Assembly: GCF_014207135.1 (NCBI RefSeq)
Contig: NZ_JACHCC010000008.1
Coordinates: forward strand, 62,001-126,000
Source of the DNA: Pedobacter cryoconitis
GTDB taxonomy: Bacteria; Bacteroidota; Bacteroidia; Sphingobacteriales; Sphingobacteriaceae
Direction: 5' to 3'
Length of the DNA: 64,000 bases
The first letter of the stretch is position 1. Every line of letters starts with the position of its first letter. Both the position numbers and the translations under genes were made by a program. Under the pieces are notes generated by a model that saw nothing but the letters and a program-made list of their open reading frames with translations, was not told the origin of the DNA and did not search any database. This document shows positions 1-19,036 of this stretch, in pieces.

Positions 1-102
1 ACGGTAGCGCCATATTTCATACACATCTATTTTAAACAAACCACTACGTGGTTCAATAACTTCCGTCCATTGTGGATCTATAACTCTATCTTCCTGTTCC
101 AT
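1..102 (-). CDS. O-antigen/polysaccharide ABC transporter permease, N-terminus only (runs off the window)
   Basis: Reading leftward from an ATG at 102 gives 34 codons with no stop before the window edge. The peptide contains WTEVIEP, a short spacer, LFKIDVYEIW and RYR. This is the cytoplasmic N-terminus typical of the Wzm-type (ABC-2) permease that exports O-antigen or capsule chains with a Wzt ATPase. Its start overlaps the end of the upstream epimerase gene by 17 bp, so the two are probably translated from one message. Family assignment rests only on these 34 residues; the membrane domain is outside the window. Confidence 0.72.
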   Translation of the reverse strand, partial: MEQEDRVIDPQWTEVIEPRSGLFKIDVYEIWRYR

Positions 103-1078
103 TTTCAATCACCTTATTACCAAACTCCGCCTTTAATGTACTTTTAAGCCCTTCTACTATTGTATAAGGCGGTTGAAAGCCAGAACTCAATACGCTATTG
201 GAATCATATTCCGTTACTGCGCAGAATTTTTTCACTCTTACAGAACTAATGGAAAGTTTCTTTTGCAACAGCCATGCTAATACATCAAATCCATAGCCCC
301 CAAGAAGGCCTAAGAAATAAGGTATATATATTGTAGGAATTCGTCTGTCTAATGCTTCACCAGTATTTAAAACCAAATCGTTAGTTGTAAAATCAGGTTT
401 ATCAACATAATTGTAAACGTTGTATCCTCTTTCTTTATGTAAAATCAGAAACAGTATAAACGCGACAACATTACCGATATAAGACATAGATTTCCTGTTA
501 TTTCCTTTCCCTATCATAATAAATTTCCCAGATGCAATCTGATTTAATAAATTATAAACATTTCCTCTGTTTCTTTCTCCGAAAATTACTGTAGGCCTGA
601 TGACGTTAATATTCCAGTCTTCATGAGTCTTATACCACTCCTGCAGTAGCTGTTCTGCCTTCCATTTGCTCTTTCCATAATGATTAAAAGGGTCAGCTGG
701 CGTATTTTCATTTGGATTATTCTTATCTAAACCATAAATAGCAACTGTACTTGTAAATATGATCCGTTTAACTGCATTTTTCTCCATCGCTTCCAGGGTA
801 CACTGCATACCATTCACGTTAACATCATAATACAATGACGTTGGTTTTACGTCATCCCTGTGTTCGGCAGCCAATAAAACGACTAAATCTATTCCCTGCA
901 ACAGCGTCTGCATAACCTCTTTGTCCAGGACATCAGCAATTCTTGTAATTTCCGGATACCGGGTACTTTGTTGCTTATCAATATTTAGTATTTGAAATAT
1001 TTCGGAATGAAATAAAATTTCTATCAATTTCGAACCAACAAAACCAGACCCGCCTAAAACCGCAATTTTCATAATCAT
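86..1078 (-). CDS. NAD-dependent epimerase/dehydratase (extended SDR), surface polysaccharide locus
   Basis: 330 aa. The N-terminus has the Rossmann nucleotide-binding motif GGSGFVG after a short beta strand, and YGKSK in the first half supplies the SDR catalytic Tyr-x-x-x-Lys. Proteins of this family change nucleotide-linked sugars (4-epimerisation, dehydration or reduction) in the cytoplasm. The start ATG overlaps the stop of the WecA-like gene by 4 bp (ATGA), and the end overlaps the ABC permease start, so it sits in a tightly coupled polysaccharide operon. The exact sugar substrate cannot be read from the sequence. A second Met two codons in is an equally possible start. Confidence 0.85.
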   Translation of the reverse strand: MIMKIAVLGGSGFVGSKLIEILFHSEIFQILNIDKQQSTRYPEITRIADVLDKEVMQTLLQGIDLVVLLAAEHRDDVKPTSLYYDVNVNGMQCTLEAMEKNAVKRIIFTSTVAIYGLDKNNPNENTPADPFNHYGKSKWKAEQLLQEWYKTHEDWNINVIRPTVIFGERNRGNVYNLLNQIASGKFIMIGKGNNRKSMSYIGNVVAFILFLILHKERGYNVYNYVDKPDFTTNDLVLNTGEALDRRIPTIYIPYFLGLLGGYGFDVLAWLLQKKLSISSVRVKKFCAVTEYDSNSVLSSGFQPPYTIVEGLKSTLKAEFGNKVIENGTGR

Positions 1079-2269: not shown

Positions 2270-3214
2270 CTACTTAATTCCCGAATGTATTTTTTTAAAA
2301 AAGTATTCCACCTGTGAAAAATCAACATCCTTTAGCAACACTAACTTGTTTTTATCCAATAAATAAATTGTTGGTGAAGCTTTGAGGTCGTATATATTTT
2401 TTTTCAATATATCCCGGTCCCGATCCAGTCCATTTACCCAGTTAGAAGGCAGATTAGGCTGATATGCCTTCCAGATTTTTTCGTTCCCCTCGGGATATAT
2501 TGCAATAATTTTTAACATCTTCTTACCGATCAACTCATTAATTACCAAAGATTTCTTTAGTTGCCTAACTGCCAGTTCGCAACTACTACAGCCTGGTTCA
2601 TAAAAGACAAGAAGAGTGAAAGGAGATTTTATTTCACTCAAACTCTCTCTTTTTCCATTTTCCAGCCAATAAAAAAATAAATTAGCTTTTGACCCCGGCT
2701 TATTTTTTCGAACTATTTGGAGTTGTAATTGATACTTTATTTTTTCATTATTATCTACCATATCAGATTCCAGGAAATACTGTAGTACAATTTCATAATA
2801 CAAGTCATTTCGCATAGGTGAATTGGGATCATATAAATACTTATCAAATAAATTTTTGAAAAAAATAAATGTCACTTTCTGCGATTTGGCTTTATCCAAA
2901 AATGAATAAATACTCTTCTTAACTTCACTGACAGGCGCATAAGGAAATATCACGATATAGCCTACAAATGCTTGCTCTGCTAACTCTCCCTGCGTACCGG
3001 TTAAATTATTTTTAAAATTAAAACTGTCCCAATAGTGGGAAAGCCGATCATTATATTTTGCTTTTGAATTTGTAAAATTCCGGGAAACAGCACGTTGCTT
3101 ATCAAGCACTTTATTTTTATCTGTTGTTCTTTTTTCTTTTGTTCCCTGGCACGATAAGCAACAAATAGTCAGTACAAAAAATGACACCTTCAGGAATTGA
3201 TTACAGATTTTCAT
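2270..3214 (-). CDS. DUF5106-type thioredoxin-fold lipoprotein
   Basis: 314 aa. The first 21 residues are a lipoprotein signal ending in the lipobox CCLSC (lipid Cys22). The middle third resembles the DUF5106 region that precedes a thioredoxin fold in many Bacteroidota proteins. The redox motif is CSSC at residues 209-212, followed later by ASPTIYLLD, which supplies the cis-proline loop. Expected role: thiol-disulfide exchange in the periplasm, anchored to a membrane. The start codon overlaps the upstream HAD gene by 4 bp, so the two are co-transcribed. The gap to the downstream WecA-like gene is 61 bp, so the operon may continue. Confidence 0.75.
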   Translation of the reverse strand: MKICNQFLKVSFFVLTICCLSCQGTKEKRTTDKNKVLDKQRAVSRNFTNSKAKYNDRLSHYWDSFNFKNNLTGTQGELAEQAFVGYIVIFPYAPVSEVKKSIYSFLDKAKSQKVTFIFFKNLFDKYLYDPNSPMRNDLYYEIVLQYFLESDMVDNNEKIKYQLQLQIVRKNKPGSKANLFFYWLENGKRESLSEIKSPFTLLVFYEPGCSSCELAVRQLKKSLVINELIGKKMLKIIAIYPEGNEKIWKAYQPNLPSNWVNGLDRDRDILKKNIYDLKASPTIYLLDKNKLVLLKDVDFSQVEYFFKKIHSGIK

Positions 3215-3639
3215 AGGATGCCGAAAAAAAAGCTACGTATTCCTTTTTTGGAATTTCTATTTCTTTCCGATAAGAAATTCTCCTGAAAAACTAATTTGTG
3301 TGTCTGTTTATTCTTAATAGCCTGATAAAGCAAACCCCAATCCTGAAGCCCCCCAAAATTTCGATCGTCAATAAATAGATCAGCTCTTAATTTCCGTCCC
3401 GCAGTTAAAGGATCTTCTTCCGGAAAATTTGCATTATAGGCAAAAAAACATAAGCCCCTAGATTCACAATAATCAATAGCTTCTTGCAGCAAATCACCTT
3501 CTCTAACTGTCCAAAGAATCAATTGATGGTTTTCATTTTGAAGTTGCTTCAATGTATCAAATGCAAAAGGAATTGGTTTACCTATGGACGGGTACCTATG
3601 TTCAACAATTGTCCCATCAAAATCAACAGCAATTATCAT
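3211..3639 (-). CDS. BT0820-like small HAD hydrolase
   Basis: 142 aa. It starts MIIAVDFDGTI, the HAD motif I with Asp6 as nucleophile and Asp8 as acid/base. LILWTVREG is motif II and LFIDDRNFGG is motif IV. This short cap-less architecture matches the BT0820-type hydrolases of Bacteroidota, whose substrate is not well defined. The last residues (after residue 120) are strongly basic and unlike the usual core. The gene overlaps the DUF5106 lipoprotein gene by 4 bp. Confidence 0.75.
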   Translation of the reverse strand: MIIAVDFDGTIVEHRYPSIGKPIPFAFDTLKQLQNENHQLILWTVREGDLLQEAIDYCESRGLCFFAYNANFPEEDPLTAGRKLRADLFIDDRNFGGLQDWGLLYQAIKNKQTHKLVFQENFLSERNRNSKKGIRSFFFGIL

Positions 3640-3694: not shown

Positions 3695-5545
3695 CTAATT
3701 AAGGGGATATAACTTAGCTCGGACACAACGCACAGTTGGTGCACCCAGGCTACTAACCACGCTGGCTTTATAGACATAACCATTGCTAGCATTTGCGGCA
3801 CTTATTTGACTTGCAGCAGTATTTATATTGTTAGGATAAAAGAAGGAACCTGTCCCTTGAGTAAACGGTACAGTACCAGCATTGTATACGAAACCACCAC
3901 CAGTGGGGTTGTCACCAGCCATAAACTGGGCAATCTTATTATTACTGGCGTTAAAAAAAGAGTCACCAGGTGTACCGCTCGCAGTAAAACCCTTAAATGA
4001 AAGAATAAGTTTATTACTGAAATAAGGAGTTGCAGCACCTGTTGTACTTTCAGTCGTAGTATACTCTATCCAATTACCCGATGAAGTAGCTGCGTTAAAG
4101 ACAAATTTAAGGTTAGTGTTCTGTACAAGACTATTAACTTCGTTAAGAGTTGGCATGCGCCATGTACCCGCCGGATATACCAAACTACACGCATCAACCG
4201 CCCCTACGGTTGGTCCGGAAGGAAATTGCGTTTTAAATTTCCAGAACTCACCGCTCAAATTAGAATATCGGTTATCAGGAAAATGCCTGAATACATAATT
4301 TCCAGTACCACTGCTCAAGGAAGCTCCTGTCCAAAACAAATTCGCTCTGGCCCAGGATGTTCCATTTACTGTCACTGCCGATTCAACTAAATCGACTTTC
4401 AGGAGTTTACCATTTGTAAGCGTCACACTTGGAAAAATAAACTTACCGGTAAGTCCGGAAAAAGAACGGGAACTACCATCATCTAATGTGAGCGTAAAGT
4501 CTGTCACAGTCACAGGAAGATTTGTAATTGTTTTTGGAGTAGCTGTAGTAGCCGTATAAAAATATGCAATTCGTGCCGTATTCGATACGACACCAGTTAT
4601 TGGGAAATTTTTATTAACCGAACTGGCAGAAGGAAGGCCTGTTGCTGGTGTAACATTAGTTACAGCACCCGTTTTGATGTTAACAGTTCCCACGTCAAAA
4701 TTCGTTGGATCAATTTGCACCGTACCAGAGGTTAAACTAGCAAACATCCCCTGGGCATTGAGTACAACCCCTACCCTGGTAGTCAGGTGTTTAAAAGGAA
4801 TATTAATATTAGCATTCTGAACGGTTTTTGCCGGCGGTATATCTTTACCCGTTGTAACTTGACCGCTAGCATATAACAGGTCCCGGTTTACCGCAGTAGG
4901 CATAGTTGGATTTGCCCTTTGGGCAGCAGGAATATCAGCAACATCGTTCGCGTCATTATAAGAATATGCAAACCAATTATAGGTTGTTCCCTGACTCACA
5001 ACTACACTTGCATTAACCCCCATTGTAAATAAGGTACTGGAAACAAAGCTCCCGTCTGCAGCATTATAGAGTAATAGACGAAACTTATTTCCCCCAGCCA
5101 ATGGTGAAGAAGTCGTCGCTCCCGTAGGCATTGCAAGTGCCGTCTCCTGTTGTTTACCTTCCTGCTGGACAGATAATAGAACTTCTAAACCACCCGACCT
5201 AACAATTTTATTTCCCAAAGCTTTATTTTCTGTCTTTAAAACTTGTTCTGTATTAGTCAAATTTATTCCATTACCATTATTAGAGGTTGCTTTCAGTGAA
5301 ATACTATTTGACCCACCATTTTTAGAACCTTCTGCCTGCAGAACTCCATTCGGCCCTTCATCTTCGACATTATCTATACCATCAACTACAACGTTTAGTT
5401 TAACAAGATCACCTGTTAAAACATTACCCGCAGGGACTACCTCATTGCTGTCTTTTTTAGAGCAACTCCATAAAAAAAGTATACCTAATAACAGCAAAAC
5501 AGTTAAACGAAAACTGATACTATTCTTTTTTATAACCAGACTCAT
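3695..5545 (-). CDS. Fimbrillin-family lipoprotein with FISUMP-like C-terminus (locus 1)
   Basis: 616 aa. A type II signal peptide ends LWSC (lipid Cys28). The body is rich in Thr, Ser, Asn and Gly with beta-sandwich character, as in fimbrillin / Mfa-like proteins of Bacteroidota. Near residue 395 TSWARANL starts a second module, and the C-terminus has GTWRMPTLNEV and ends with VRCVRAKL, the signature of FISUMP-type domains. Expected place: the outer membrane surface, as a pilus subunit or anchor. It follows a 61-aa peptide gene (24-bp gap) and an OmpA gene, apparently in one operon. A paralogue of the same design lies at 11426-13345. Confidence 0.8.
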   Translation of the reverse strand: MSLVIKKNSISFRLTVLLLLGILFLWSCSKKDSNEVVPAGNVLTGDLVKLNVVVDGIDNVEDEGPNGVLQAEGSKNGGSNSISLKATSNNGNGINLTNTEQVLKTENKALGNKIVRSGGLEVLLSVQQEGKQQETALAMPTGATTSSPLAGGNKFRLLLYNAADGSFVSSTLFTMGVNASVVVSQGTTYNWFAYSYNDANDVADIPAAQRANPTMPTAVNRDLLYASGQVTTGKDIPPAKTVQNANINIPFKHLTTRVGVVLNAQGMFASLTSGTVQIDPTNFDVGTVNIKTGAVTNVTPATGLPSASSVNKNFPITGVVSNTARIAYFYTATTATPKTITNLPVTVTDFTLTLDDGSSRSFSGLTGKFIFPSVTLTNGKLLKVDLVESAVTVNGTSWARANLFWTGASLSSGTGNYVFRHFPDNRYSNLSGEFWKFKTQFPSGPTVGAVDACSLVYPAGTWRMPTLNEVNSLVQNTNLKFVFNAATSSGNWIEYTTTESTTGAATPYFSNKLILSFKGFTASGTPGDSFFNASNNKIAQFMAGDNPTGGGFVYNAGTVPFTQGTGSFFYPNNINTAASQISAANASNGYVYKASVVSSLGAPTVRCVRAKLYPLN

Positions 5546-5569: not shown

Positions 5570-5755
5570 TTAAAAATCCCCTCTCTGGGTATCTGCATCT
5601 CCGGGAGTTATATCAGTGATATCTTCTACCGTAATATTAGCATTAACCGGGGTAACTGTAGCTGAAGATGCTGCTATACCCTGCTCTAACTCAATAATTG
5701 CCACTTCTAATTTTGGAGATTCGTATTTCTTTCTTTTCACTACTTCCATATCCAA
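5570..5755 (-). CDS. Small acidic peptide preceding fimbrillin gene (locus 1)
   Basis: 61 aa. The N-terminal half is Lys-rich and contains KYESPKLEVAIIELEQGIAA; the C-terminal half is acidic and Thr/Asp-rich (ITDITPGDAD). A clear relative of 68 aa lies at 13367-13573, also directly before a fimbrillin lipoprotein gene; both share Y-x-(S/T)-P-x-(L/M)-E-V-x-(I/L)-x-ELE-(Q/E)-GIAA-(S/G)-S. There is no signal peptide and no cysteine. The conserved leader and variable tail resemble a precursor peptide, but no processing enzyme is nearby. It sits between the OmpA gene (33-bp gap) and the fimbrillin gene (24-bp gap). Function unknown. Confidence 0.7.
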   Translation of the reverse strand: MDMEVVKRKKYESPKLEVAIIELEQGIAASSATVTPVNANITVEDITDITPGDADTQRGDF

Positions 5756-5788: not shown

Positions 5789-6979
5789 TTATTCTGCCAT
5801 TGTAATAACCGCACGACTCAATTTAGGGTCATCATAAAACATATTTTTGGTTCCGCCTTCATAAGTTATTTTCAATTGAGATGCTGAAACACCGAATTCT
5901 CTAACCAAAACATTATATACCGCTTCTGCGCGTTCTCTGCTTAAACGTTTATTTGTCATTTCACTTCCTGTTCCTTTATCTGCATACCCTTTAATATTGT
6001 ACACTATATTCTGACTACCCTCTTTAATGACTTTAGCAAGGAAACCTAAATTTACCCGCACCTCATTGCCAATTACACTTTTATTGATTTCGAACGTAAC
6101 CAAAACCGGGACTGCCAGCATTCTTTTTTCTATTTTGATATCAGTTATTGTAGCATTTTTTGCTTCTGCCAACTGCTGTTTTAATGACTCATTGTCTTTC
6201 GCCAAAATATTTATTCTATTACGCAGTGCATCTAGCGCCACTTCATCATAGCTAATTATGGTCATTGTAGCTCTGTCCCAGTTACGTTTATTAAATTTAT
6301 AAACAATTCCAAGCGCCCCAGTTAACAGCCCATCCTGCCCGCGGTTACCAACAGTACCACCAAAGCGTTCATTCACCATACTACCGCGAACATCCAAAGT
6401 AAGATCAAAGGCTTTACCCAAACGGAAACTATTGAAAAGTCCAATGTTCGCACTTACTTCTTTCGCTACAGGTTGTTCCCAGGTATACATCCACCCCAGG
6501 CCTGCATAGGGGCTTAAATTATAGAAGCGATCTTCTTTGTAACCAGATAAAATATTAAACATGTTAAACAGGACATCAGCATGAACGTTTACATAATGAA
6601 ACTCCATCTTACTCAACCATTTTGAAGCATCATAAACTACACCTGTCCCATGATTACCATTTTGGTTCACTCCTACGATCTTCAATCCATTGATTGCTGC
6701 CCTTACCCCAATGCTTGGTGAAAACCACTTACCAACGTAAAATTCATAGGCCGGAGAAAAACGATCACCCAATTTCATTTGCTTATTGTGATCAGCAAAA
6801 AATAGCTGTGTTCCGGCCCCTGCACCAATAAACCAATTGTCAAAAAACCGGTTCGTTGCGATTTTGTATTTATCTTCACTCGACTTAATAACAGTGTCTT
6901 TTTTAATATTATACGTCTGAGACCAGGCACTACTACTTATTACCAAACCTAAAACAACACCTAAAATTTTTTTCCTCAT
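5789..6979 (-). CDS. OmpA-family outer membrane protein
   Basis: 396 aa. A Sec signal peptide (cleavage after SSSAWSQ) is followed by an N-terminal beta-barrel (residues about 45-235, alternating hydrophobic strands, many Gly/Tyr/Trp), a short coiled region (LAKDNESLKQQLAEAK) and a C-terminal OmpA peptidoglycan-binding domain (VPVLVTFEINK, IKGYADKGTGS, NKRLSRERAEAVYNVL). Such proteins tie the outer membrane to the cell wall. It is the first gene of an operon with the 61-aa peptide and a fimbrillin lipoprotein, as in pilus loci where an OmpA-like protein supports the structure. A promoter lies about 70 bp upstream. Confidence 0.86.
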   Translation of the reverse strand: MRKKILGVVLGLVISSSAWSQTYNIKKDTVIKSSEDKYKIATNRFFDNWFIGAGAGTQLFFADHNKQMKLGDRFSPAYEFYVGKWFSPSIGVRAAINGLKIVGVNQNGNHGTGVVYDASKWLSKMEFHYVNVHADVLFNMFNILSGYKEDRFYNLSPYAGLGWMYTWEQPVAKEVSANIGLFNSFRLGKAFDLTLDVRGSMVNERFGGTVGNRGQDGLLTGALGIVYKFNKRNWDRATMTIISYDEVALDALRNRINILAKDNESLKQQLAEAKNATITDIKIEKRMLAVPVLVTFEINKSVIGNEVRVNLGFLAKVIKEGSQNIVYNIKGYADKGTGSEMTNKRLSRERAEAVYNVLVREFGVSASQLKITYEGGTKNMFYDDPKLSRAVITMAE

Positions 6980-7051: not shown

Positions 7052-7059
7052 CAAAGTTA
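7052..7059 (-). promoter_or_regulatory. -7 promoter element of the OmpA-peptide-fimbrillin operon
   Basis: The minus strand reads TAACTTTG, an exact fit to the Bacteroidota -7 consensus TAnnTTTG, 72 bp before the OmpA start codon. An 18-bp spacer separates it from the conserved upstream motif at 7078-7107, whose CATTTTC end sits where the -33 element is expected. Confidence 0.55.
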
Positions 7060-7077
7060 TGGCGTACAGATGGTTAA

Positions 7078-7107
7078 GAAAATGAACAATGGGTACAATG
7101 AGTATAA
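7078..7107 (-). promoter_or_regulatory. Conserved 30-bp upstream motif, copy 1
   Basis: The minus strand reads TTAT-N3-CATT-N-TACCCATT-N3-CATTTTC. The copy before the second fimbrillin locus (13661-13690) has identical spacing and 23 identical positions of 30; a weaker copy precedes the relic at 7849. Three CATT units stand 9 and 7 bp apart. The place just upstream of the -33 region suggests an activator site (inference). Confidence 0.6.
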
Positions 7108-7179
7108 CTGATGGCAAAAAGGCAATAATCATCCATAAAAGCTGTCAATTATAATAGAGAAATCAAGATGATCTCGGTG

Positions 7180-7473
7180 TTACGTGCTGAGTTCCAATCC
7201 AAGAAATGAAGAAATAATCTTCTGATCTATTTCAGGTCTGCTTGAAACCAATAGCGAAGTACTCTCGCCCATGCAGGTTAACCTTTGTATTTTTTTTTCC
7301 TGATCCAAAAATATAGCGAAAAAACCAGCGCTCTCTACTTCCTGAGAACAGTTTACCATATCAGCGTGCAAAATATCATCCGGAAATAAAACTGGACTCC
7401 CATTAATAATTACATACTTACCTATCATAAAATGCTTTTTACATTTAAGGCCATTCAACTCCTCTTCTACCAT
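7180..7473 (-). CDS. Hypothetical protein, 97 aa
   Basis: Not recognised. The 97 residues have no signal peptide or membrane helix. A plausible fold of alternating strands is seen (KYVIINGSPVLFPDDILHAD, then GFFAIFLDQEKKI), with three Cys outside any known metal motif. It stands alone upstream of the OmpA operon, with about 120 bp between its stop and the conserved motif. Codon use resembles the neighbours and no strong alternative frame overlaps it. It may be a genuine orphan gene. Confidence 0.45.
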   Translation of the reverse strand: MVEEELNGLKCKKHFMIGKYVIINGSPVLFPDDILHADMVNCSQEVESAGFFAIFLDQEKKIQRLTCMGESTSLLVSSRPEIDQKIISSFLGLELST

Positions 7474-7731
7474 TTAGAACAACCTTTCTTTTTTAACAGA
7501 TTTATTTATTATCTACCTGATTTCATTCAAGAAGAATATCAAACAGGTTATACAAACCTAGGCTGTATATCATATTTAGAAAAGACGAAATGGGTCGAAA
7601 GGCACAAACTATAAGCAGAACCTTCAAAAAACTAAACAAATAAAATGCTGTAAACCAAATATTTACAATAAACATTCTCAGGAGTACATGGTCATCCAAT
7701 TGACAACCAATAAATGCCGTTCTACCCATAC

Positions 7732-7761
7732 ATATATGCCTTATACCCGATTTTAAATTTC
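7732..7761 (+). promoter_or_regulatory. Degraded third copy of the fimbrillin-locus upstream motif
   Basis: Aligned without gaps to the copies at 7078-7107 and 13661-13690, this plus-strand stretch keeps 17 of the 23 positions shared by the other two, including TACCC and the final TTTC. A TATCTTTG element (7778-7785) follows after 16 bp, against 17 and 18 bp at the intact loci. It points at the fimbrillin/FISUMP relic. Confidence 0.42.
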
Positions 7762-7777
7762 TAGCACATGATCATCA

Positions 7778-7785
7778 TATCTTTG
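7778..7785 (+). promoter_or_regulatory. -7 element TATCTTTG upstream of the fimbrillin relic
   Basis: Exact TAnnTTTG match, 64 bp before the first ATG of the relic at 7849. The distance is like that at the two intact fimbrillin loci. Probably still a working promoter with a non-functional gene behind it. Confidence 0.42.
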
Positions 7786-7848
7786 TAGATTAATTGTTAT
7801 CAGTTAACCATGATAATGTCACCGCATTTTTTTTGACTTAAAGCATAA

Positions 7849-8210
7849 ATGATGTTATCATCATTTTGGATAACATCATGCAAGAAAGACAGTCAGAATA
7901 ATGAAACTGGGAATAATACAACCAGTGGTGAAGCCGGACTGAATATAATTAATATCAATATGTCACTACGCTAATAAATGGCAACACAAGTCAAACCACT
8001 GCTACAGTACCTGCTTTCACGCTTGGTTCATCTACAATAGGTCCATTTACCTTCAATAACGTCAATATTACCTCTGGTGTCAGCCACAATTTAAAGATTA
8101 CTGTTAGTCCAACAGATTTTTTCCTGAGCTGGCTGGGGCAGCAATCAGCAGCCATCGGCGGACAAGTATGGATGAAGTATAACCTGGGCGTAAATCAATA
8201 CATAAGTTAA
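7849..8210 (+). pseudogene. Relic of a fimbrillin/FISUMP lipoprotein
   Basis: From an ATG at 7849 one frame encodes 41 residues with a lipobox-like ITSCKKDS and a Asn/Thr-rich linker, then stops at 7972. Coding sense continues in another frame (about 7959-8210): a beta-rich stretch with GPFTFNNVNITSG and LKITVSPTDFF, then IGGQVWMKYNLGVN, the opening of a FISUMP domain, and a stop at 8208. So the gene has a frameshift near 7959 and has lost its C-terminal domain. The short signal sequence also suggests damage at the 5' end. A promoter and motif like those of the two intact fimbrillin loci lie upstream. The stretch 8211-8388 shows nothing further. Confidence 0.6.
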
Positions 8211-8388
8211 AATGTAACATGAGTACATTTTGGTGTATAAGTGGGTATATATAAGGATCATCAACGGAAGCAATATCAATGATAAACTATAACCTTTGTA
8301 AGCAATAGTAAAGTTAAATATGATTACAGGCATCCCTGTTCTATTGATTTAATTTTATCTGAAAACAATCTAAACCTAAACAAAAACT

Positions 8389-9114
8389 ATGAAGAAAAGC
8401 TGTCTGCTTTTTGTTCTCTGCATTATAGCAGGGACTTTAACCTCGCGTGCCCAATGGTCTGTAGGACTTGAAGCAGGGTACAACAAAAATTATCTCTTTA
8501 CCAATAGTGGTTTCAGAGCCTTTACTGAATATAAACCAGTAGAAGGTTTTAACATTGGTATACCAGTTAAATACACACTGAATAACTGGCTTGGCATTCA
8601 GGCAGATCCACAGTTTATATGCAAAAGTAACAGAGTAGAGCGCTCTGATTTTTTTGCGGGAGTTTATCAGAAAAACACAAACAGCTATATTCAGTTACCC
8701 CTGATGGCACATTTTACTTTCGGAGGCCAGAAACTCAAAGGTTTTTTCAATGTAGGAGGTTATGCTGCCTATTGGACCGCCTCGCACATTAAAGGGACTC
8801 AGTTAAACATCTTTCCGCCACCTAATGATCTTCCTGGTAATTCTCAATACAAAGGGATTATGGATATCTTTCCGGGATACAGCTATGACCAGAAGTATGA
8901 TTTTGATAGTCGCAAAGACCGTCGCATTGAACTGGGAGTACTTGCAGGAGCTGGAGTAAGTTATCAGCTTAAACCCAGGTATGAGCTTTTTGCTGAAGGA
9001 AGGTACTATCGCGCATTGACCGATCAGCAGAAAAACTATATGCTCAATCAGATCCCTCGCTATAACGACACTTTCGTTATCCAGCTGGGGTGCATGTATC
9101 ATTTAGGCAAATAA
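8389..9114 (+). CDS. Outer membrane beta-barrel protein
   Basis: 241 aa. A Sec signal peptide ends near TSRAQ; the mature part begins WSVGLEAGYN and shows alternating amphipathic strands with Gly/Tyr/Asn turns, ending in an aromatic-rich strand (FVIQLGCMYHLGK). This is the pattern of the porin/PorT-like OMP_b-brl families of Bacteroidota, located in the outer membrane. It is followed after 36 bp by a lipoprotein S41 protease on the same strand, suggesting an operon. The ligand or partner cannot be inferred. Confidence 0.75.
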   Translation: MKKSCLLFVLCIIAGTLTSRAQWSVGLEAGYNKNYLFTNSGFRAFTEYKPVEGFNIGIPVKYTLNNWLGIQADPQFICKSNRVERSDFFAGVYQKNTNSYIQLPLMAHFTFGGQKLKGFFNVGGYAAYWTASHIKGTQLNIFPPPNDLPGNSQYKGIMDIFPGYSYDQKYDFDSRKDRRIELGVLAGAGVSYQLKPRYELFAEGRYYRALTDQQKNYMLNQIPRYNDTFVIQLGCMYHLGK

Positions 9115-9150
9115 ACCGGCTATTCAATTATTTAACTACTAAACGATTTT

Positions 9151-10365
9151 ATGAAAACAACTTGTCATTTTATATATAAATACATATTCCAGATTGTACT
9201 GGGTATCTCAATAATCAGTGTCCTGGTGTCCTGCAGAAAAGAATTACCTCAGATTAACCAGCCAGAACGTTACATTACCGGGAATTTCAGCGAAGCTTTC
9301 GAAGCTTACTGGAATGGAATGAACAATAATTATATTTTTTGGGATATAGATCCTACTAACTGGGATGATGTATACAAAAAATACAAACCTTTATTCGCTC
9401 AGATGAACATAAATGATTCAACTGATGTCAGGAAATCATATACTTATTTTAAGGAAATGACATCCAAACTGGTCGATTCACACTATGCACTGCAGATTAC
9501 CAGTAAATATGTAAAAGACTCAGCAAAATACATTAGCCCCTCTACGTTAAGACATTCTAAAGAACCTGGATATCATGGAATTATAGATCCTAATTTCTTT
9601 TACTTCAGCATTCCACCAAAATATCTTGATCCAGGTTATGTTAAAGGGTTTGTTAATGTATCTGACGGAAGTCAATTTTTCGCAATTGCCGGTAAGATCA
9701 AAAGTAATATTCTTTACCTCCATTTTAACAGTTTCAATCTGAAGCAGGTTTATGGATCAACAACGACCAATGATGCCCAGAAGACATTGAAGTACTATTT
9801 TGATCAGTTAAAAAACACTGTCGGTCTGAAAGGAATCATTATAGATGTAAGAAGTAATGGAGGTGGTGCATTAGCAGATCTGGATCTTCTGGTTGGTAAT
9901 CTGACCGATAAACCATATAGTATTGGTGCAACACGATCAAAAGGAGGAATGGGCCGTCTGGATTATACACCCTGGATAGATGCCCAGGTTCATCCTGCAA
10001 AAGACGCGAAAGCATTTACTGCCCCTATTGTGGTATTAGCTGATTTGAATTCTGTAAGTATGGCAGAAATGACTACTATGGCATTAAAAGCGTTACCTAC
10101 CGGGAATGCCACTTTTGTCGGGGAGCGCACCTGGGGAGGTAATGGACCATTACTTCCAAATGATGATGTTTATAATGGAGGACAATTTAAAACAGGTTTT
10201 ATGAATCTGGTTTATACTTCCACTTTGATGCTACGTTATAAAGATGGTAAAATCTATGAAGGACTGGGTTTCCCTCCTGATGTCGAAATAAAATATAATG
10301 GGGCGGCTCTGGATACAGGAACTGATCCTCAGCTTGAAAAAGCAATTAGCCTCATTCCTCAATAA
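9151..10365 (+). CDS. S41-family C-terminal processing peptidase-like lipoprotein
   Basis: 404 aa. The signal ends LVSC (lipid Cys28). Residues about 185-380 form an S41 (tail-specific protease) domain: KGIIIDVRSNGGGA, IVVLADLNSVSMAEM with the likely nucleophile Ser303, and FVGERTWGG. There is no recognisable PDZ domain, so this is the short Bacteroidota S41 type; residues 40-120 are a helical N-terminal region usual in this group. Expected location: periplasmic or outer-membrane face. It probably forms an operon with the preceding barrel and with the decayed lipoprotein gene that follows. Confidence 0.82.
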   Translation: MKTTCHFIYKYIFQIVLGISIISVLVSCRKELPQINQPERYITGNFSEAFEAYWNGMNNNYIFWDIDPTNWDDVYKKYKPLFAQMNINDSTDVRKSYTYFKEMTSKLVDSHYALQITSKYVKDSAKYISPSTLRHSKEPGYHGIIDPNFFYFSIPPKYLDPGYVKGFVNVSDGSQFFAIAGKIKSNILYLHFNSFNLKQVYGSTTTNDAQKTLKYYFDQLKNTVGLKGIIIDVRSNGGGALADLDLLVGNLTDKPYSIGATRSKGGMGRLDYTPWIDAQVHPAKDAKAFTAPIVVLADLNSVSMAEMTTMALKALPTGNATFVGERTWGGNGPLLPNDDVYNGGQFKTGFMNLVYTSTLMLRYKDGKIYEGLGFPPDVEIKYNGAALDTGTDPQLEKAISLIPQ

Positions 10366-10416
10366 TACAGAAACACTAATATCAACTTACATAAAATCAT
10401 AATTAAACAAAAACCT

Positions 10417-10605
10417 ATGAACAAAAAACAAATTAATCTATAAAAGAGCGGTACTATGGCAATGACTTGCCTGGTTATCCTATTTCAGCTGTCTGCCTGT
10501 CAAAAATTAATGCCCACAGCAGCGTGGCATCAGCTAGCTCCCCCCTACCCAAGAAGTGTTAAGGGGGAGCTTTATATTTTCATAACCGATAATCAAAATA
10601 AATAA
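10417..10605 (+). pseudogene. N-terminal relic of a lipoprotein gene with an in-frame stop
   Basis: ATG at 10417 begins MNKKQINL, then a TAA, then in the same frame KSGTMAMTCLVILFQLSACQK, a convincing lipoprotein signal peptide with lipobox LSAC. The frame ends at 10603 after running through a terminator hairpin, so no mature domain remains. The position behind the barrel/S41 pair suggests a former third gene of that operon. Reading from the second ATG (10456) gives a 49-aa lipoprotein-like peptide, which could still be made. Confidence 0.45.
10536..10580 (+). terminator. Rho-independent terminator after the barrel/S41 operon
   Basis: Arms AGCTCCCCCCTA and TAAGGGGGAGCT (12 bp, one mismatch) with a 12-nt loop, followed by TTTATATTTT. 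It lies inside the relic lipoprotein frame, which supports that frame being dead. Confidence 0.65.
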
Positions 10606-10612
10606 CAAGAAA

Positions 10613-11371
10613 ATGAATAATAAACAAAAAGTAGTCGCATTATTAAAATCAATAGAAACAGGCGATGCAGAACCTATTGGATATATTGATGCAAACAAAT
10701 ACAAACAACATAATCTGACTGCAGGTGACGGTCTCGCTGGCTTTGCCGGGATATTACAAACACTTCCGCCAAACTCGGCAAGAGCAAATACAGTACGGGT
10801 TTTTGAGGATGGAGATTATGTTTTTACACATACTGAATACAATTTTTTCGGACCAAAAATAGGTTTTGATATTTTTCTTTTTGAAAATGGGAAAATTGTA
10901 GAGCATTGGGATAACTTACAGGAAATCGCAGCCCCCAATCCAAGTGGTCACACCATGACAGACGGCGAAACTATCATTTCCGATATCGACAAAACCGCAA
11001 CGAACAAAATATTGGTACTCAACTTCATAGAAGATATTTTGGTAAGTGGTCAAGTAGACAAACTTTCGGACTATGTTGACGGAGATAATTATATTCAGCA
11101 CAACCCACAAATCGGTGACGGGCTCTCAGGATTGGGAAAAGCATTGGAGTATATGGCTTCACAAGGCATTACCATGAAGTACAATAAAATTCATAAAGTA
11201 TTAGGCGAAGGCAACTTTGTACTGACAGCAAGTGAAGGTACATTCGGCGGACAACATACTTCATTTTATGATTTATTTAGAATGGAGAATGGAAAAATAG
11301 CCGAACATTGGGACACCATAGAAACAATCCCTTCAAAAGAAGCCTGGAGAAATAATAATGGAAAGTTTTAA
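10613..11371 (+). CDS. Tandem SnoaL-like (NTF2 fold) protein
   Basis: 252 aa built from two copies of a SnoaL-like NTF2-fold domain, about residues 1-118 and 128-245. Each repeat has the pattern (Y/N)KQHN or NYIQHNP, GDGL(A/S)G, F..GDYVFTHTE or GNFVLTASE, then FENGKIVEHWD or MENGKIAEHWD. The family covers small-molecule isomerases and hydrolases and many uncharacterised proteins; no active site can be assigned here. No signal peptide, so cytoplasmic. It stands alone and converges on the fimbrillin gene with a shared hairpin at 11383-11420. Confidence 0.8.
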   Translation: MNNKQKVVALLKSIETGDAEPIGYIDANKYKQHNLTAGDGLAGFAGILQTLPPNSARANTVRVFEDGDYVFTHTEYNFFGPKIGFDIFLFENGKIVEHWDNLQEIAAPNPSGHTMTDGETIISDIDKTATNKILVLNFIEDILVSGQVDKLSDYVDGDNYIQHNPQIGDGLSGLGKALEYMASQGITMKYNKIHKVLGEGNFVLTASEGTFGGQHTSFYDLFRMENGKIAEHWDTIETIPSKEAWRNNNGKF

Positions 11372-11382
11372 ATCTAAATACC

Positions 11383-11420
11383 ACCATTCTCTTGCCGAAC
11401 GAATAAGGCAAGAGAATGGT
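11383..11420. terminator. Bidirectional hairpin between convergent genes
   Basis: Perfect 14-bp arms (ACCATTCTCTTGCC / GGCAAGAGAATGGT) with a 10-nt loop, between the SnoaL gene stop and the fimbrillin gene stop. T-rich sequence follows only loosely, so the terminator role is inferred from position. Confidence 0.6.
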
Positions 11421-11425
11421 AATAA

Positions 11426-13345
11426 TTATTTATCTCTTACGCAACGAATTGGACATCTATCATCAGCAGACCAATTTTTCTGAGCTGTACCTCTGGCTGT
11501 AAGGAATGTGTTTGTACCATTAGCGGTACTGCCACCATAAATAACAGCCATCTCTGCTTTCACTTTTTGATCACCGGCATCAGTCCAGGTAAAAGGCAAC
11601 GCATCACTGATCATATATACTGCCGCATCGGGGATCCATGCACTACCAGTTGGGGCATTTGTTGGCCAGTATTGCCTATTCATTACCGGAATTAATGGAG
11701 CAGTATTATCCTGCACAAGATAATAATAACGCCCTCCTGCGTAGAATTTTAACCGTACCGCCGATCCGTCGGTTTCGTTCGCACCAAAAAAATATATAAA
11801 TGGATGGTTAGTTCCTGTAATGTCCCCATTTGGCTGGATAACACCACCATTAAAAACATTGCTTACACTAGCACCATTATAAACAGCATAAGCACCTAAA
11901 CTAGCATAATCAGCAGCTGTTGGCATGCGCCATCTGCCTCCGGCAACCAATCTGCATGGATCTAATGCAGTGTTCTGAGTAATAGGGGTCACCTGATTAT
12001 AAGCAGCGTTATTATCATCACTAGTCAAATAGGTAACGCTGCCTGTAGGAGATGTTTGTTTAGTTAATTTTGCAGGTACCAATGGCTGATTCGGATAAGA
12101 AGCATAGTTCCAATAATCGGTACTCATATAATTAGATCCGGTTTCCTCTGGATAATACCTGTTGAAATAGATATTATTTACCCAATCATACGCCAGATTC
12201 CCTCTTGCCCAGATCACATTGCCAGCCTTAATACCTGTTGATTGAAAACTAAGGTGTATAGTATACTGCACCCCCCCTTGTAATGTTCCATCCGGAATGT
12301 TGATTTGAGGGATATCGGTTCTCGCCGGAGCCGCATTAGGATTAGTAACTCCAGAAACAATGTTACCATTTAACGTAGCCGAATAAATTTTTATATAATT
12401 CCCTGTACCCTTAGGAGATAACATATATGGACTACTTGTTACCACCTGAGTATTCATAGTATTAGGAAAAGTAAAAAATCTTTCAGCAGCGTTTGAACTT
12501 GTTGGTGCTGTTGTGGTACCATTAGCGGCAAGATTTACTGATCCAGGATCAACAATAACAGCTTGCATAGCTGAAATCAATCCTAGTTCTGGTGAAGCAT
12601 CAACACTAAGAGTTACTCTGATATTAACATGCCTGAAGGTTACATTAATATAATTCGCCTTCCCCCCTACAATCGTCATAGGACTACTCTTAAAATACAA
12701 AAAATCTGTTTTACTACTAACTGAAATTGTATTTGTCAAATCATTTAAGGTTTGGACATTAGCACCAAATGAAGGTGCTGTGGTCGTATTATTTGAAATA
12801 GCCACAAAAGTATACGTTTTCCCACCATCTAATTGACTTATTGCCTGACTAGCGTCACTTTGTGTTGTGCTATTATATGTTTTCTCCAGCGCTATTAAAC
12901 GATTACCATTCTGATCAAACACCATTACCAGATACTGAATGTTACTTCCAAGTGGTGTTACAGTAGATGTGCCTGGTGTAACAACCAGTGCACCAGTTGC
13001 TATATTACTTTTCGTATTACCTGAGATGGTGGCTGCCTGCACTGCTGTAGTTGAACCTCTTTCCGGTGTAATGGTTGCTACAATGTTATAATTTTTATTA
13101 TAGCGAACTTCTGCGACAAACTTACCAGCAGTCGAAGCAGGTACTTTTCCATTGGCTGAAGGTTGATCTTCTGCAGTACCACTATCATCTGCCACTCCCA
13201 TCAGCTTTACGACAACAGAAGTTTGTCCATTCCCCTCCATATTACCAATATCATCCGGGCTACGTTTACACGATGTCATGCCAAAAAACATGACTAATAC
13301 CACAAAAGCTATTCTATTATGATTCTTAAATAATTTTGGTTTCAT
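11426..13345 (-). CDS. Fimbrillin-family lipoprotein with FISUMP-like C-terminus (locus 2)
   Basis: 639 aa. The signal peptide ends MTSC (lipid Cys26). The body is Thr/Ser/Asn-rich with beta-sandwich character; NVIWARGNLAYDWV opens the C-terminal module, which includes CRLVAGGRWRMPTAADYA and ends RCPIRCVRDK. The same two-part design is seen in the 616-aa protein at 3695-5545, though the sequences have diverged strongly. Expected surface location as pilus subunit or anchor. It lies 21 bp behind a 68-aa peptide gene. Unlike locus 1 there is no OmpA gene in the operon. Confidence 0.78.
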   Translation of the reverse strand: MKPKLFKNHNRIAFVVLVMFFGMTSCKRSPDDIGNMEGNGQTSVVVKLMGVADDSGTAEDQPSANGKVPASTAGKFVAEVRYNKNYNIVATITPERGSTTAVQAATISGNTKSNIATGALVVTPGTSTVTPLGSNIQYLVMVFDQNGNRLIALEKTYNSTTQSDASQAISQLDGGKTYTFVAISNNTTTAPSFGANVQTLNDLTNTISVSSKTDFLYFKSSPMTIVGGKANYINVTFRHVNIRVTLSVDASPELGLISAMQAVIVDPGSVNLAANGTTTAPTSSNAAERFFTFPNTMNTQVVTSSPYMLSPKGTGNYIKIYSATLNGNIVSGVTNPNAAPARTDIPQINIPDGTLQGGVQYTIHLSFQSTGIKAGNVIWARGNLAYDWVNNIYFNRYYPEETGSNYMSTDYWNYASYPNQPLVPAKLTKQTSPTGSVTYLTSDDNNAAYNQVTPITQNTALDPCRLVAGGRWRMPTAADYASLGAYAVYNGASVSNVFNGGVIQPNGDITGTNHPFIYFFGANETDGSAVRLKFYAGGRYYYLVQDNTAPLIPVMNRQYWPTNAPTGSAWIPDAAVYMISDALPFTWTDAGDQKVKAEMAVIYGGSTANGTNTFLTARGTAQKNWSADDRCPIRCVRDK

Positions 13346-13366
13346 ATATTCAATTCATTAATAATA

Positions 13367-13573
13367 TTACCAATTTATTGGTTGATCAGGGGTGACGTCA
13401 GCATTATCCCATGTTTCGTTAACTGGCGTAGATGAACTCGCCGGTAATGCTCTTCCTGAGCCAGCTGCTATTCCCTCTTCCAGTTCAACTAAAATTACTT
13501 CCATAGCAGGAGTAATGTATTTTGGTTTGAAATAGCGTTCTGTTTTTTCCTCATTGTTATTTCTCATATTCAT
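13367..13573 (-). CDS. Small peptide preceding fimbrillin gene (locus 2)
   Basis: 68 aa. The N-terminal half is charged (NNNEEKTERYFKPKY), then comes TPAMEVILVELEEGIAAGS, and the tail is short and acidic with Trp (ETWDNADVTPD). It shares the ELE-(Q/E)-GIAA core with the 61-aa peptide at 5570-5755 and the same place directly upstream of a fimbrillin gene. No signal peptide or Cys is seen. First gene of its operon, about 62 bp behind a TAGATTTG promoter element. Function unknown; the constant core with a variable tail looks like a precursor or a fimbrial accessory peptide. Confidence 0.7.
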   Translation of the reverse strand: MNMRNNNEEKTERYFKPKYITPAMEVILVELEEGIAAGSGRALPASSSTPVNETWDNADVTPDQPINW

Positions 13574-13635
13574 ATTGTATCTCTAAATCAAAGAATCACG
13601 ACCAATTATAGTTTGAAGATTATAATTAAAAAATG

Positions 13636-13643
13636 CAAATCTA
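13636..13643 (-). promoter_or_regulatory. -7 promoter element of peptide-fimbrillin locus 2
   Basis: The minus strand reads TAGATTTG, an exact TAnnTTTG match, 62 bp before the peptide start codon and 17 bp downstream of the conserved motif at 13661-13690. Confidence 0.55.
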
Positions 13644-13660
13644 TGATAATCAGAAACCAC

Positions 13661-13690
13661 GAAAATGGCTAATGGGTAGAATGGCAATAA
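13661..13690 (-). promoter_or_regulatory. Conserved 30-bp upstream motif, copy 2
   Basis: The minus strand reads TTAT-N3-CATT-N-TACCCATT-N3-CATTTTC with the same spacing as the copy at 7078-7107 (23 of 30 positions identical). It is placed 17 bp before a -7 element. Likely shared regulator site for the fimbrillin loci. Confidence 0.6.
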
Positions 13691-13934
13691 TTATAGGCAG
13701 ATAAAATAAAAAAGGTGGGCAAAACTTCAGCCCCCCTCCCAACTTAGACTTTAAGAAATTAAACAGTCTATTATTTTGATTTTACTAAAGTACCATCACC
13801 TAATACATATACATGATCGGGGGCATTTGAAGATTTATCTAACATGGTCACCTACAAAGAGTCTGTATCTGTCTGAATGATCATTTACATCATTCGGTTT
13901 CCCCATTTTCTTAAAATATAACTGGTTATTCTGA
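13691..13934 (-). pseudogene. Possible gene tail between fimbrillin locus 2 and antiporter
   Basis: This gap holds, on the minus strand, coding-like sequence in two frames: MGKPNDVNDHSDRYRLFVGD (from about 13906), then from about 13849 a frame reading MLDKSSNAPDHVYVLGDG and TLVKSK with a stop at 13777. This looks like the C-terminal part of a protein with one frameshift. A GC-rich imperfect hairpin near 13712-13735 with a T-run on the minus strand could be its terminator. The family is not recognised. Confidence 0.25.
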
Positions 13935-17629: not shown

Positions 17630-19036
17630 ATGAAAACCAGTTATAAAATCAAGGCGTTACTGATCTCTTGTCTTATTATTGTAAGTACATTGTCGCTTAT
17701 GCAATTTTACCTGGTAAAAGCCACCTACCAGCTAAAAAAAGAGAAATACAATGACGATCTGAAGATTGCTGCCGGGAAATTTTATGATGTTACCCACAGG
17801 AAAACCAAACTAAGCGCTACAATTTGGGCAAATTTGCAAGCTACCATTCAATTGTATATTGAAGGGAAAGTGAGCAGGAAAGATCTCCTCAAAGCAATAA
17901 TGATAAAGAATGATTCGGTCACAAGGATAGCAAATCAATATTTTAGCAACATATCAGCCAAAACACCACTACTTAAGAATGCAGACTACGTAGAAAGGAT
18001 CGATGAGGTGATCATCCAGGTAAACGGCAGAAATAGCATTTTGTTGGCGAGATCTGGTAAACCGTATATCTATTTCGGGCATTCTGCTCCGAAGACGGAT
18101 CTTTTGCTCCTGGGGGGCCAAAGTTTCTCAAATTCAAAATGGTTGGTAAAAATACCCCCTACCAACCGGTTATCATTATGTAAAGTATTTATATTTGGGT
18201 CAAGTTATGTGAATACATCCGGATGGAAGCGAGAGCTTTTTGGGCAAATGGCAAGTATTTTTCTGCTGGCGGTTGGTCTGATTGTTGCAGTTATCATATT
18301 ATTTTATCTGATGTTCAGTGCAATTTTCAGGCAAAAGAAAATAGCTGAGATCCAGACAGATTTTGCCAACAATATTACACACGAACTTAAAACACCTTTA
18401 AGTTCCGTCAGCATAATCATAAAAAGTTTGGGTAAACAAGAGGTTCAGGCTAATCCAGTCTTGTTTAATGAGCTATTGCAATCATTATCGCGACAACAGA
18501 TTAAAATCCAGCAAACAGTTGACAGCGTTTTAGAAAGTGCAACACTAACAGAGCTGAAAATTGAAAAGACATCAATAAATATCTCAACCTGTTTAAATGA
18601 ATATGCAAAGAGTATTTTTTTAGACACGCATACATTAATAACTGACATCAGCCCTGAAACATTCATCCTTAGAACACACCTCCCTACACTTCAAAATGCA
18701 CTTAATAATCTTGTAGAGAATGCAGTAAAGTATACCCCAGCGGGTACTACCATTACCTTAAAGGCTTATTCAGGAGATAATTATTATATTGAAGTCATTG
18801 ACAAGGGCTCCGGTATTGCTATATCGCAGCAAACGATGATATTTAATAAGTTTTATCGTATCTCTGAACAAAACAGACACACCGTTAAAGGACTAGGTCT
18901 CGGCTTATATATCAGTAAACATGCTATTGAGCAGTTAGGAGGTCACCTGACACTAAAGAGTGAGCCTGGATCCGGCAGCACATTTATCATTCAATTACCC
19001 ATAGATGAAAACAAAGGTACTAGTTATAGAGGATGA
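17630..19036 (+). CDS. Sensor histidine kinase
   Basis: 468 aa. TM1 (about 8-28) and TM2 (about 207-230) enclose a periplasmic sensing region of some 175 residues with no recognised fold. Then come the dimerisation helix with phospho-acceptor His251 in THELKTPLSS, the N box NLVENAVKYTP, the G1 box DKGSGI, and the G2 box GLGLGLYISK. The last 32 bp overlap the response regulator gene, so the two proteins form a pair. It belongs to the small HisKA kinases with a simple periplasmic domain. The TlpA and small membrane protein genes just before it may encode its targets or sensors. Confidence 0.9.
   Translation: MKTSYKIKALLISCLIIVSTLSLMQFYLVKATYQLKKEKYNDDLKIAAGKFYDVTHRKTKLSATIWANLQATIQLYIEGKVSRKDLLKAIMIKNDSVTRIANQYFSNISAKTPLLKNADYVERIDEVIIQVNGRNSILLARSGKPYIYFGHSAPKTDLLLLGGQSFSNSKWLVKIPPTNRLSLCKVFIFGSSYVNTSGWKRELFGQMASIFLLAVGLIVAVIILFYLMFSAIFRQKKIAEIQTDFANNITHELKTPLSSVSIIIKSLGKQEVQANPVLFNELLQSLSRQQIKIQQTVDSVLESATLTELKIEKTSINISTCLNEYAKSIFLDTHTLITDISPETFILRTHLPTLQNALNNLVENAVKYTPAGTTITLKAYSGDNYYIEVIDKGSGIAISQQTMIFNKFYRISEQNRHTVKGLGLGLYISKHAIEQLGGHLTLKSEPGSGSTFIIQLPIDENKGTSYRG

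What the first reader, a model, noticed from the sequence alone, without database searches (positions are those of the whole stretch)
7052..13690. Shared 30-bp motif in front of three fimbrillin-type loci
On the minus strand at 7078-7107 and 13661-13690, and in weaker form on the plus strand at 7732-7761, the same pattern occurs: TTAT-N3-CATT-N-TACCCATT-N3-CATTTTC. It stands 18, 17 and 16 bp before a TAnnTTTG -7 element. The first two match at 23 of 30 positions; the third keeps 17 of those 23. Downstream genes are, in order, OmpA-peptide-fimbrillin, peptide-fimbrillin, and a fimbrillin/FISUMP relic. Three CATT units at fixed steps suggest a direct-repeat binder such as a LytTR-type regulator. 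This looks like an undescribed adhesin regulon.
Basis: partly seen in the sequence, partly recalled or inferred. Interest (0 to 1): 0.82.

Follow-up and report, generated by a model that had tools for sequence, protein, structure and literature searches.

The report
Shared operator of polysaccharide-fimbrillin promoters
A Pedobacter genome carries six look-alike promoters, four of them within 7 kb, that share a 9-base sequence repeated 21 bases apart and sit in front of genes for a surface polysaccharide and fimbria-like proteins; it looks like the docking site of one regulator that switches on the cell's coat, an ordinary kind of control found at a new place.

Summary
The two strong sites are real: 23 of 30 positions agree, each 17-18 bp before TAnnTTTG, and their core occurs nowhere else in the 6.0-Mb genome. 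Site 3 looks like noise by its 17/23 count, yet a sequence model built only from sites 1-2 ranks site 3 and a new site 4 (7553-7620, minus) as the next best places in the genome, both in the same 0.8-kb gap and both with TAnnTTTG at the right distance. Two weaker sites lie before a glycosyltransferase in the same cluster and before a capD-like gene. The operator is not three CATT units: it is a 9-bp direct repeat, TTCTACCCA-N12-TTCTACCCA, ending 7 bp before a TTTTC -33-like box. That is LytTR geometry, and a REC-LytTR gene adjoins the same polysaccharide cluster. The regulon is wider than adhesins: site 1 heads OmpA-peptide-fimbrillin plus a long run of polysaccharide genes. The motif is absent upstream of OmpA orthologs in other species. 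Which protein binds (LytTR, or AraC) is not settled. A new member of a known kind of regulation, of modest interest.

The parts
7111..7119 (-). Site 1, upstream half-site TTTTGCCAT
   Evidence: conserved columns at -24,-23,-21,-19,-16 mirror -3,-2,0,2,5
7090..7098 (-). Site 1, downstream half-site TTGTACCCA
7078..7082 (-). Site 1, TTTTC box at the -33 position
7052..7059 (-). Site 1, -7 element TAACTTTG
13694..13702 (-). Site 2, upstream half-site ATCTGCCTA
13673..13681 (-). Site 2, downstream half-site TTCTACCCA
13661..13665 (-). Site 2, TTTTC box
13636..13643 (-). Site 2, -7 element TAGATTTG
7720..7728 (+). Site 3, upstream half-site TTCTACCCA (identical to the downstream half-site of site 2)
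7741..7749 (+). Site 3, downstream half-site TTATACCCG
7778..7785 (+). Site 3, -7 element TATCTTTG
7612..7620 (-). Site 4 (new), upstream half-site TTCTGCTTA
7591..7599 (-). Site 4 (new), downstream half-site TTCGACCCA
7553..7560 (-). Site 4 (new), -7 element TAGGTTTG
5789..6979 (-). OmpA-family protein, first gene behind site 1 (396 aa)
   Evidence: PF00691 E 8.8e-15; orthologs in polysaccharide clusters of Sphingobacterium and Pedobacter
5570..5755 (-). 61-aa peptide with motif ELEQGIAASS; kept between OmpA and fimbrillin in relatives
3695..5545 (-). Fimbrillin-fold lipoprotein-like protein with a C-terminal Lcl_C/FISUMP-like part
3211..3639 (-). HAD-like hydrolase (by its DFDGTIV motif; no Pfam hit)
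   Evidence: sequence
2270..3214 (-). DUF5106/thioredoxin-like protein
   Evidence: next to OmpA orthologs in L047, L048, L051
1075..2208 (-). WecA-like glycosyl transferase family 4
   Evidence: PF00953 E 2.3e-30
86..1078 (-). NAD-dependent sugar epimerase (by sequence); the run of minus-strand polysaccharide genes goes on beyond the window
13367..13573 (-). 68-aa peptide behind site 2 (40% identical to the 61-aa peptide)
11426..13345 (-). Second fimbrillin-type protein (25% identical to the first)
7180..7473 (-). 97-aa protein behind site 4; relatives adjoin, or form the N-terminus of, AraC-family regulators

Best explanation
The motif is the operator of a small, locally clustered set of regulated sigma-A promoters. 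Anatomy, 5' to 3': a 9-bp half-site, 12 bp, a second 9-bp half-site (best form TTCTACCCA-N12-TTCTACCCA), 7 bp, a TTTTC box at the -33 position that departs from TTTG, 16-18 bp, and the Bacteroidota -7 element TAnnTTTG. I infer that a regulator binds the two half-sites side by side on one face of the helix (21 bp is two turns), touches RNA polymerase at the imperfect -33 box and turns on OmpA-peptide-fimbrillin with the polysaccharide genes behind it, the second peptide-fimbrillin pair, the small protein at 7180-7473, and probably a glycosyltransferase and a capD-like gene outside the window. The most likely binder is a LytTR-type response regulator; the one encoded beside Wza/Wzc in the same cluster (contig C8:34836-35531) is the first candidate. 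Shown: the sites, their uniqueness, the 21-bp repeat, the -7 elements and the gene context. Inferred: binding, activation and the identity of the regulator. I put the shared-operator part at about 0.85 and LytTR as its binder at about 0.55.
For: Uniqueness in 6.0 Mb. A model of two sites finds the other sites genome-wide, two of them within 0.8 kb of site 1; operator-only matrix with column-permuted controls; in the six-site model the sites score E <= 7e-7 and the next place E = 0.024, inside a coding frame. 30 columns with >=5/6 identity against a mean of 5.8 in shuffles, maximum 13. Mirrored conserved columns at offset 21: 5, P = 0.0004 for that offset, 0.005 over all offsets. Geometry matches LytTR sites: two repeats of 9-11 nt with 11-13 nt between them, no common sequence (PMC4847170); mostly 12 bp apart and just upstream of -35 (PMC6193735). 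REC-LytTR gene next to CBS, Wza and Wzc genes of the same cluster.
Against: No transcript or binding data. Sites 3 and 4 alone have genome-wide E of 0.12 and 0.33, the capD and glycosyltransferase sites 1.3 and 8.8. The capD site has a poor -7 (TACATTAC) and a poor upstream half-site. The genome has 29 LytTR genes, so one within 46 kb is expected by chance about one time in five. No site was found before the LytTR gene itself. The motif is not conserved before OmpA orthologs.
Confidence: 0.55

Rival explanations
1. The same set of promoters is controlled by an AraC-family activator. Each AraC monomer has two helix-turn-helix units, so a dimer can read direct repeats at a 21-bp period and lie against the -35 region.
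For: 21-bp period plus a weaker 9-bp step inside each half, as two helix-turn-helix units might give; the 97-aa protein behind site 4 belongs to a family that forms the N-terminus of an AraC regulator in G254 and lies next to one in G356.
Against: No AraC gene was seen in the cluster or beside the 97-aa gene in this genome; the nearest one on the contig, C8:10274-11062, lies beside an unrelated export operon. The AraC geometry is from general knowledge and was not looked up.
Confidence: 0.2
2. The sites are remnants of promoter duplication among neighbouring paralogous operons, or a sequence liking of RNA polymerase, without a dedicated regulator.
For: The two peptide-fimbrillin pairs are paralogs (peptide genes 55% identical at DNA level); four sites lie within 7 kb; the motif is missing in relatives.
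Against: Conservation sits in the operator columns while spacer and flanks differ; OmpA lies between promoter and peptide in one copy only; the 21-bp internal repeat and the sites 24 kb away and on another contig are not explained.
Confidence: 0.15
3. Only sites 1 and 2 are functional; sites 3, 4 and the two outside the window are chance matches.
For: Single-site E-values of 0.12 to 8.8; site 3 has only 17 of 23 letters; the reading frame behind site 3 looks dead.
Against: Position and -7 spacing agree far beyond chance; the perfect TTCTACCCA half-site of site 3 was not part of the pattern that found it.
Confidence: 0.1

Closest known systems
LytTR-type operators (AgrA, YpdB, HdrR/BrsR)
   Same: Two direct repeats of about 9 bp, 12 bp apart, just upstream of the -35 region of an activated promoter; low sequence conservation between systems is normal (PMC4847170, PMC6193735).
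   Different: The half-site TTCTACCCA differs from the YpdB repeat GGCATTTCAT and from the classical broad consensus (recalled, not looked up); the promoters are Bacteroidota sigma-A promoters; no binding shown.
Bacteroidota sigma-A promoters
   Same: Exact TAnnTTTG in four of six sites (PMC7366714, PMC9723704).
   Different: TTTTC in place of TTTG at -33, as expected of an activator-dependent promoter (inference).
AraC-family class II activator sites
   Same: Direct repeats at a 21-bp period beside -35.
   Different: No AraC gene found in the cluster.
Invertible capsule promoters of Bacteroides fragilis
   Same: Polysaccharide locus in the same phylum.
   Different: No inverted repeats flank the promoters closely.

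Membership tests
LytTR-type operator | Two 9-11 nt repeats separated by 11-13 nt | tested here: met
   9-bp repeats with 12 bp between them in the six-site set; five mirrored conserved columns at offset 21, P 0.0004; clearest in site 3, poor in the capD site
LytTR-type operator | Repeats lie just upstream of the -35 region | tested here: met
   7 bp between the second half-site and the TTTTC-like box in the aligned sites; known range 4-11 bp (PMC6193735)
LytTR-type operator | Bound by a LytTR-domain protein | not testable with these tools
   needs gel shift or DAP-seq
LytTR-type operator | LytTR gene linked to the target genes | tested here: inconclusive
   REC-LytTR gene beside Wza/Wzc, but 29 LytTR genes in the genome
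AraC-family operator | Direct repeats at 21-bp period, each of two sub-sites | tested here: inconclusive
   21-bp and 9-bp steps seen; sub-site structure weak
AraC-family operator | AraC regulator linked to the target genes | tested here: inconclusive
   none seen in the regions read; only the small partner-like 97-aa protein is present
Bacteroidota sigma-A promoter | TAnnTTTG at -7 | tested here: met
   sites 1-4 exact; the two outside sites TACATTAC and TATCTTCG
Bacteroidota sigma-A promoter | TTTG at -33 | tested here: not met
   TTTTC in sites 1, 2 and 4, ATTTC in site 3; this element could not be found in Flavobacterium either (PMC7366714), so it hardly defines the class
Fimbrillin (FimA/Mfa-type) proteins | Tandem beta-sandwich fimbrillin fold | tested here: met
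   model of 3695-5545, residues 46-391: BF2867 Z 11.2, Mfa2 Z 10.1; mean pLDDT only 56, about 85-90 in the best parts; PF13149 in one relative, E 2.5e-6

The most novel reading that the evidence does not exclude
A dedicated REC-LytTR regulator with operator TTCTACCCA-N12-TTCTACCCA jointly switches surface polysaccharide, OmpA, small EQGIAA peptides and fimbrillins in Pedobacter: a recently wired, species-specific coat regulon in a phylum for which I found no described LytTR operator.
Probability: 0.4. Interest if true: 0.55.

Novelty: new member of a known kind. Interest (0 to 1): 0.42.

Why it matters
LytTR regulators are numerous in this genome (29) and, as far as a few paper searches showed, no operator for one in Bacteroidota is described in the library searched. 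A defined 70-bp promoter module with four copies in 7 kb and a candidate regulator gene nearby makes one directly testable, and ties surface polysaccharide, OmpA and fimbrillin-type proteins to one switch.

Tried and rejected
Conservation before orthologs: no match above 15 of 23 before 29 OmpA orthologs or the named ones. Model R2 over 144 genus and 400 family genomes: the remaining hits inspected lie almost all in coding frames, as chance would give. CATT units at steps of 9 and 7 bp as the operator: the 9-bp step exists but the conserved, mirrored columns lie at 21 bp. OmpR-type repeat at 10-11 bp, suggested by the histidine kinase/OmpR pair at 17630-19685: no signal at offsets 10 or 11. 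Invertible promoter: no close flanking inverted repeats. Dispersed repeat element: only six copies in the genome. Further sites in 150 kb of held own sequence, including before the LytTR and Wza genes: none above shuffled controls. Relic behind site 3: open stretch 7953-8207 has a GGQVWMKYNLG string that looks like FISUMP proteins, but no Pfam hit and no significant match to the neighbouring fimbrillins.
Full report
OBSERVATION. Sites 1 and 2 are exactly as described: 23 of 30 positions identical, 18 and 17 bp before TAACTTTG and TAGATTTG. The gapped 18-mer TACCCATTNNNCATTTTC is found exactly only at these two places in 6.01 Mb. With TAnnTTTG downstream it is found in none of the 144 other same-genus genomes searched. 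Site 3 keeps 17 of 23 letters, as stated. That count alone means little, because three other places in the window reach 17, but one of those three, 7579-7608 on the minus strand, also has a -7 element at 18 bp and turned out to be a fourth site.

GENOME-WIDE TEST. I built a sequence-only model from sites 1 and 2 and searched the whole genome. After the two training sites the best places were site 3 (E 0.12), site 4 (E 0.33), a place before a capD-like gene at the end of contig C9 (E 1.3) and a place between two glycosyltransferase genes at C8:45500-45554 (E 8.8). None is significant alone, but sites 3 and 4 lie within 0.8 kb of site 1, which random hits in 6 Mb would not do. A matrix of the 42-bp operator without the -7 ranks sites 4 and 3 first and second in 130 kb of contig C8 after the training sites; 1 of 200 column-permuted matrices put two of its top four there. 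Both carry exact TAnnTTTG at 18 and 16 bp, which has a chance of 0.0017 per place. In a model of all six sites they score E <= 7e-7, by construction, and the next place in the genome is at 0.024 and lies in a coding frame.

ANATOMY OF THE OPERATOR. In the six aligned sites 30 of 100 columns have at least five identical letters (shuffles: mean 5.8, maximum 13). Conserved columns at -24 T, -23 T, -21 T, -19 C and -16 A reappear as -3 T, -2 T, 0 T, 2 C and 5 A, counted from the T of TACCC. This offset of 21 bp has the highest count of all offsets (5; P 0.0004, or 0.005 over all offsets). The selection by the model favours some of these columns in sites 3 and 4, but the upstream half of site 3, TTCTACCCA, is letter for letter the downstream half of site 2, and that word was not in the model at that position. 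The glycosyltransferase site was found through model positions 14-68 only, downstream of most of its upstream half-site, and still has TTATACTTA there. So the operator is a 9-bp direct repeat with 12 bp between the copies, followed by 7 bp, a TTTTC box, 16-18 bp and the -7 element.

GENES. Site 1 heads OmpA, a 61-aa peptide, a fimbrillin-type protein, a HAD-like protein, a thioredoxin-like protein, a WecA-like transferase and an epimerase, and minus-strand polysaccharide genes go on past the window to about C8:39.8 kb: ABC exporter parts, an aminotransferase-like gene, many glycosyltransferases, then a PqqD/nucleotidyltransferase/ABC/HprK-like set. How far one transcript runs is not known. The glycosyltransferase site lies inside this run. 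In Sphingobacterium and Pedobacter relatives the same parts recur in the order nucleotidyltransferase-ABC-HprK-Wza-Wzc-OmpA, often with peptide and fimbrillin, and in S. alkalisoli with a capD homolog right behind the fimbrillin. This supports the capD site as part of the same regulon. Site 2 heads the second peptide-fimbrillin pair. A model of the first fimbrillin (mean pLDDT 56; best parts 85-90) matches Bacteroides fimbrillins and Mfa2 over residues 46-391, so the label fimbrillin is right by fold. Site 4 heads a 97-aa protein with relatives in 8 of 300 family genomes; one relative is the N-terminal part of an AraC regulator and another lies beside an AraC gene.

CONSERVATION. The motif does not stand before OmpA orthologs in other species. 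In P. antarcticus and P. cryoconitis OmpA follows Wzc directly. Searches with the six-site model of 144 genus and 400 family genomes gave hits that are mostly inside coding frames. The wiring is therefore confined to this species or its closest kin, as far as these collections show.

MECHANISM. The geometry, two 9-bp direct repeats 12 bp apart just upstream of -35, is that of LytTR sites as described in PMC4847170 and PMC6193735; PMC4847170 also says that such sites share no common sequence. A REC-LytTR gene (PF04397 E 1.4e-22, PF00072 E 7.9e-22) lies at C8:34836-35531 beside CBS, Wza and Wzc genes. It is the only LytTR gene on this contig among 29 in the genome; one within 46 kb is expected about one time in five by chance, so linkage is weak support. 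AraC proteins can also bind direct repeats at 21 bp (general knowledge), and the 97-aa protein hints at that family, but no AraC gene was seen in the cluster. The TTTTC box in place of TTTG fits an activator-dependent promoter (inference; consensus from PMC7366714).

VERDICT. The reading as an adhesin regulon is too narrow, and the CATT steps are not the operator, although the guess of LytTR is plausible. The kind of system is known; the case is new.

Noticed in passing
L074:1809-6260 (C8:39809-44260, minus): HprK-like kinase, ABC exporter, NTP_transf_5 nucleotidyltransferase, PqqD and S24 peptidase genes inside the polysaccharide cluster, an arrangement like peptide-maturation (RiPP) loci; much of the order recurs in Sphingobacterium and Pedobacter beside Wza-Wzc-OmpA. 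The EQGIAA peptides of the same cluster could be the substrate (a guess).
   Followed up: partly
window 5570-5755 and 13367-13573: A family of 59-68-aa peptides with ELEQGIAASSA kept between OmpA and fimbrillin, or directly before fimbrillin, in at least seven relatives; no Pfam or NCBIfam model matches.
   Followed up: partly
window 7180-7473; L177:469-1743: An 80-97-aa protein family that exists alone (four copies on this contig) or as the N-terminal domain of an AraC regulator; no Pfam or NCBIfam model matches.
   Followed up: partly
L188:17090-18601 and L086:3-3544 (C8:27.1-33.5 kb): Four paralogous genes in tandem for TPR proteins with a C-terminal HTH-like end (HTH by eye; only TPR found by Pfam), next to the LytTR gene.
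   Followed up: no
window 7852-7878: Perfect 9-bp hairpin GATGTTATC...GATAACATC in the leader behind site 3, seen by eye.
   Followed up: no
L074:1400-1560 and L080:13388-13500: Wzc-like kinases end in long (YG)n tails, a tyrosine-glycine run whose length differs between relatives.
   Followed up: no
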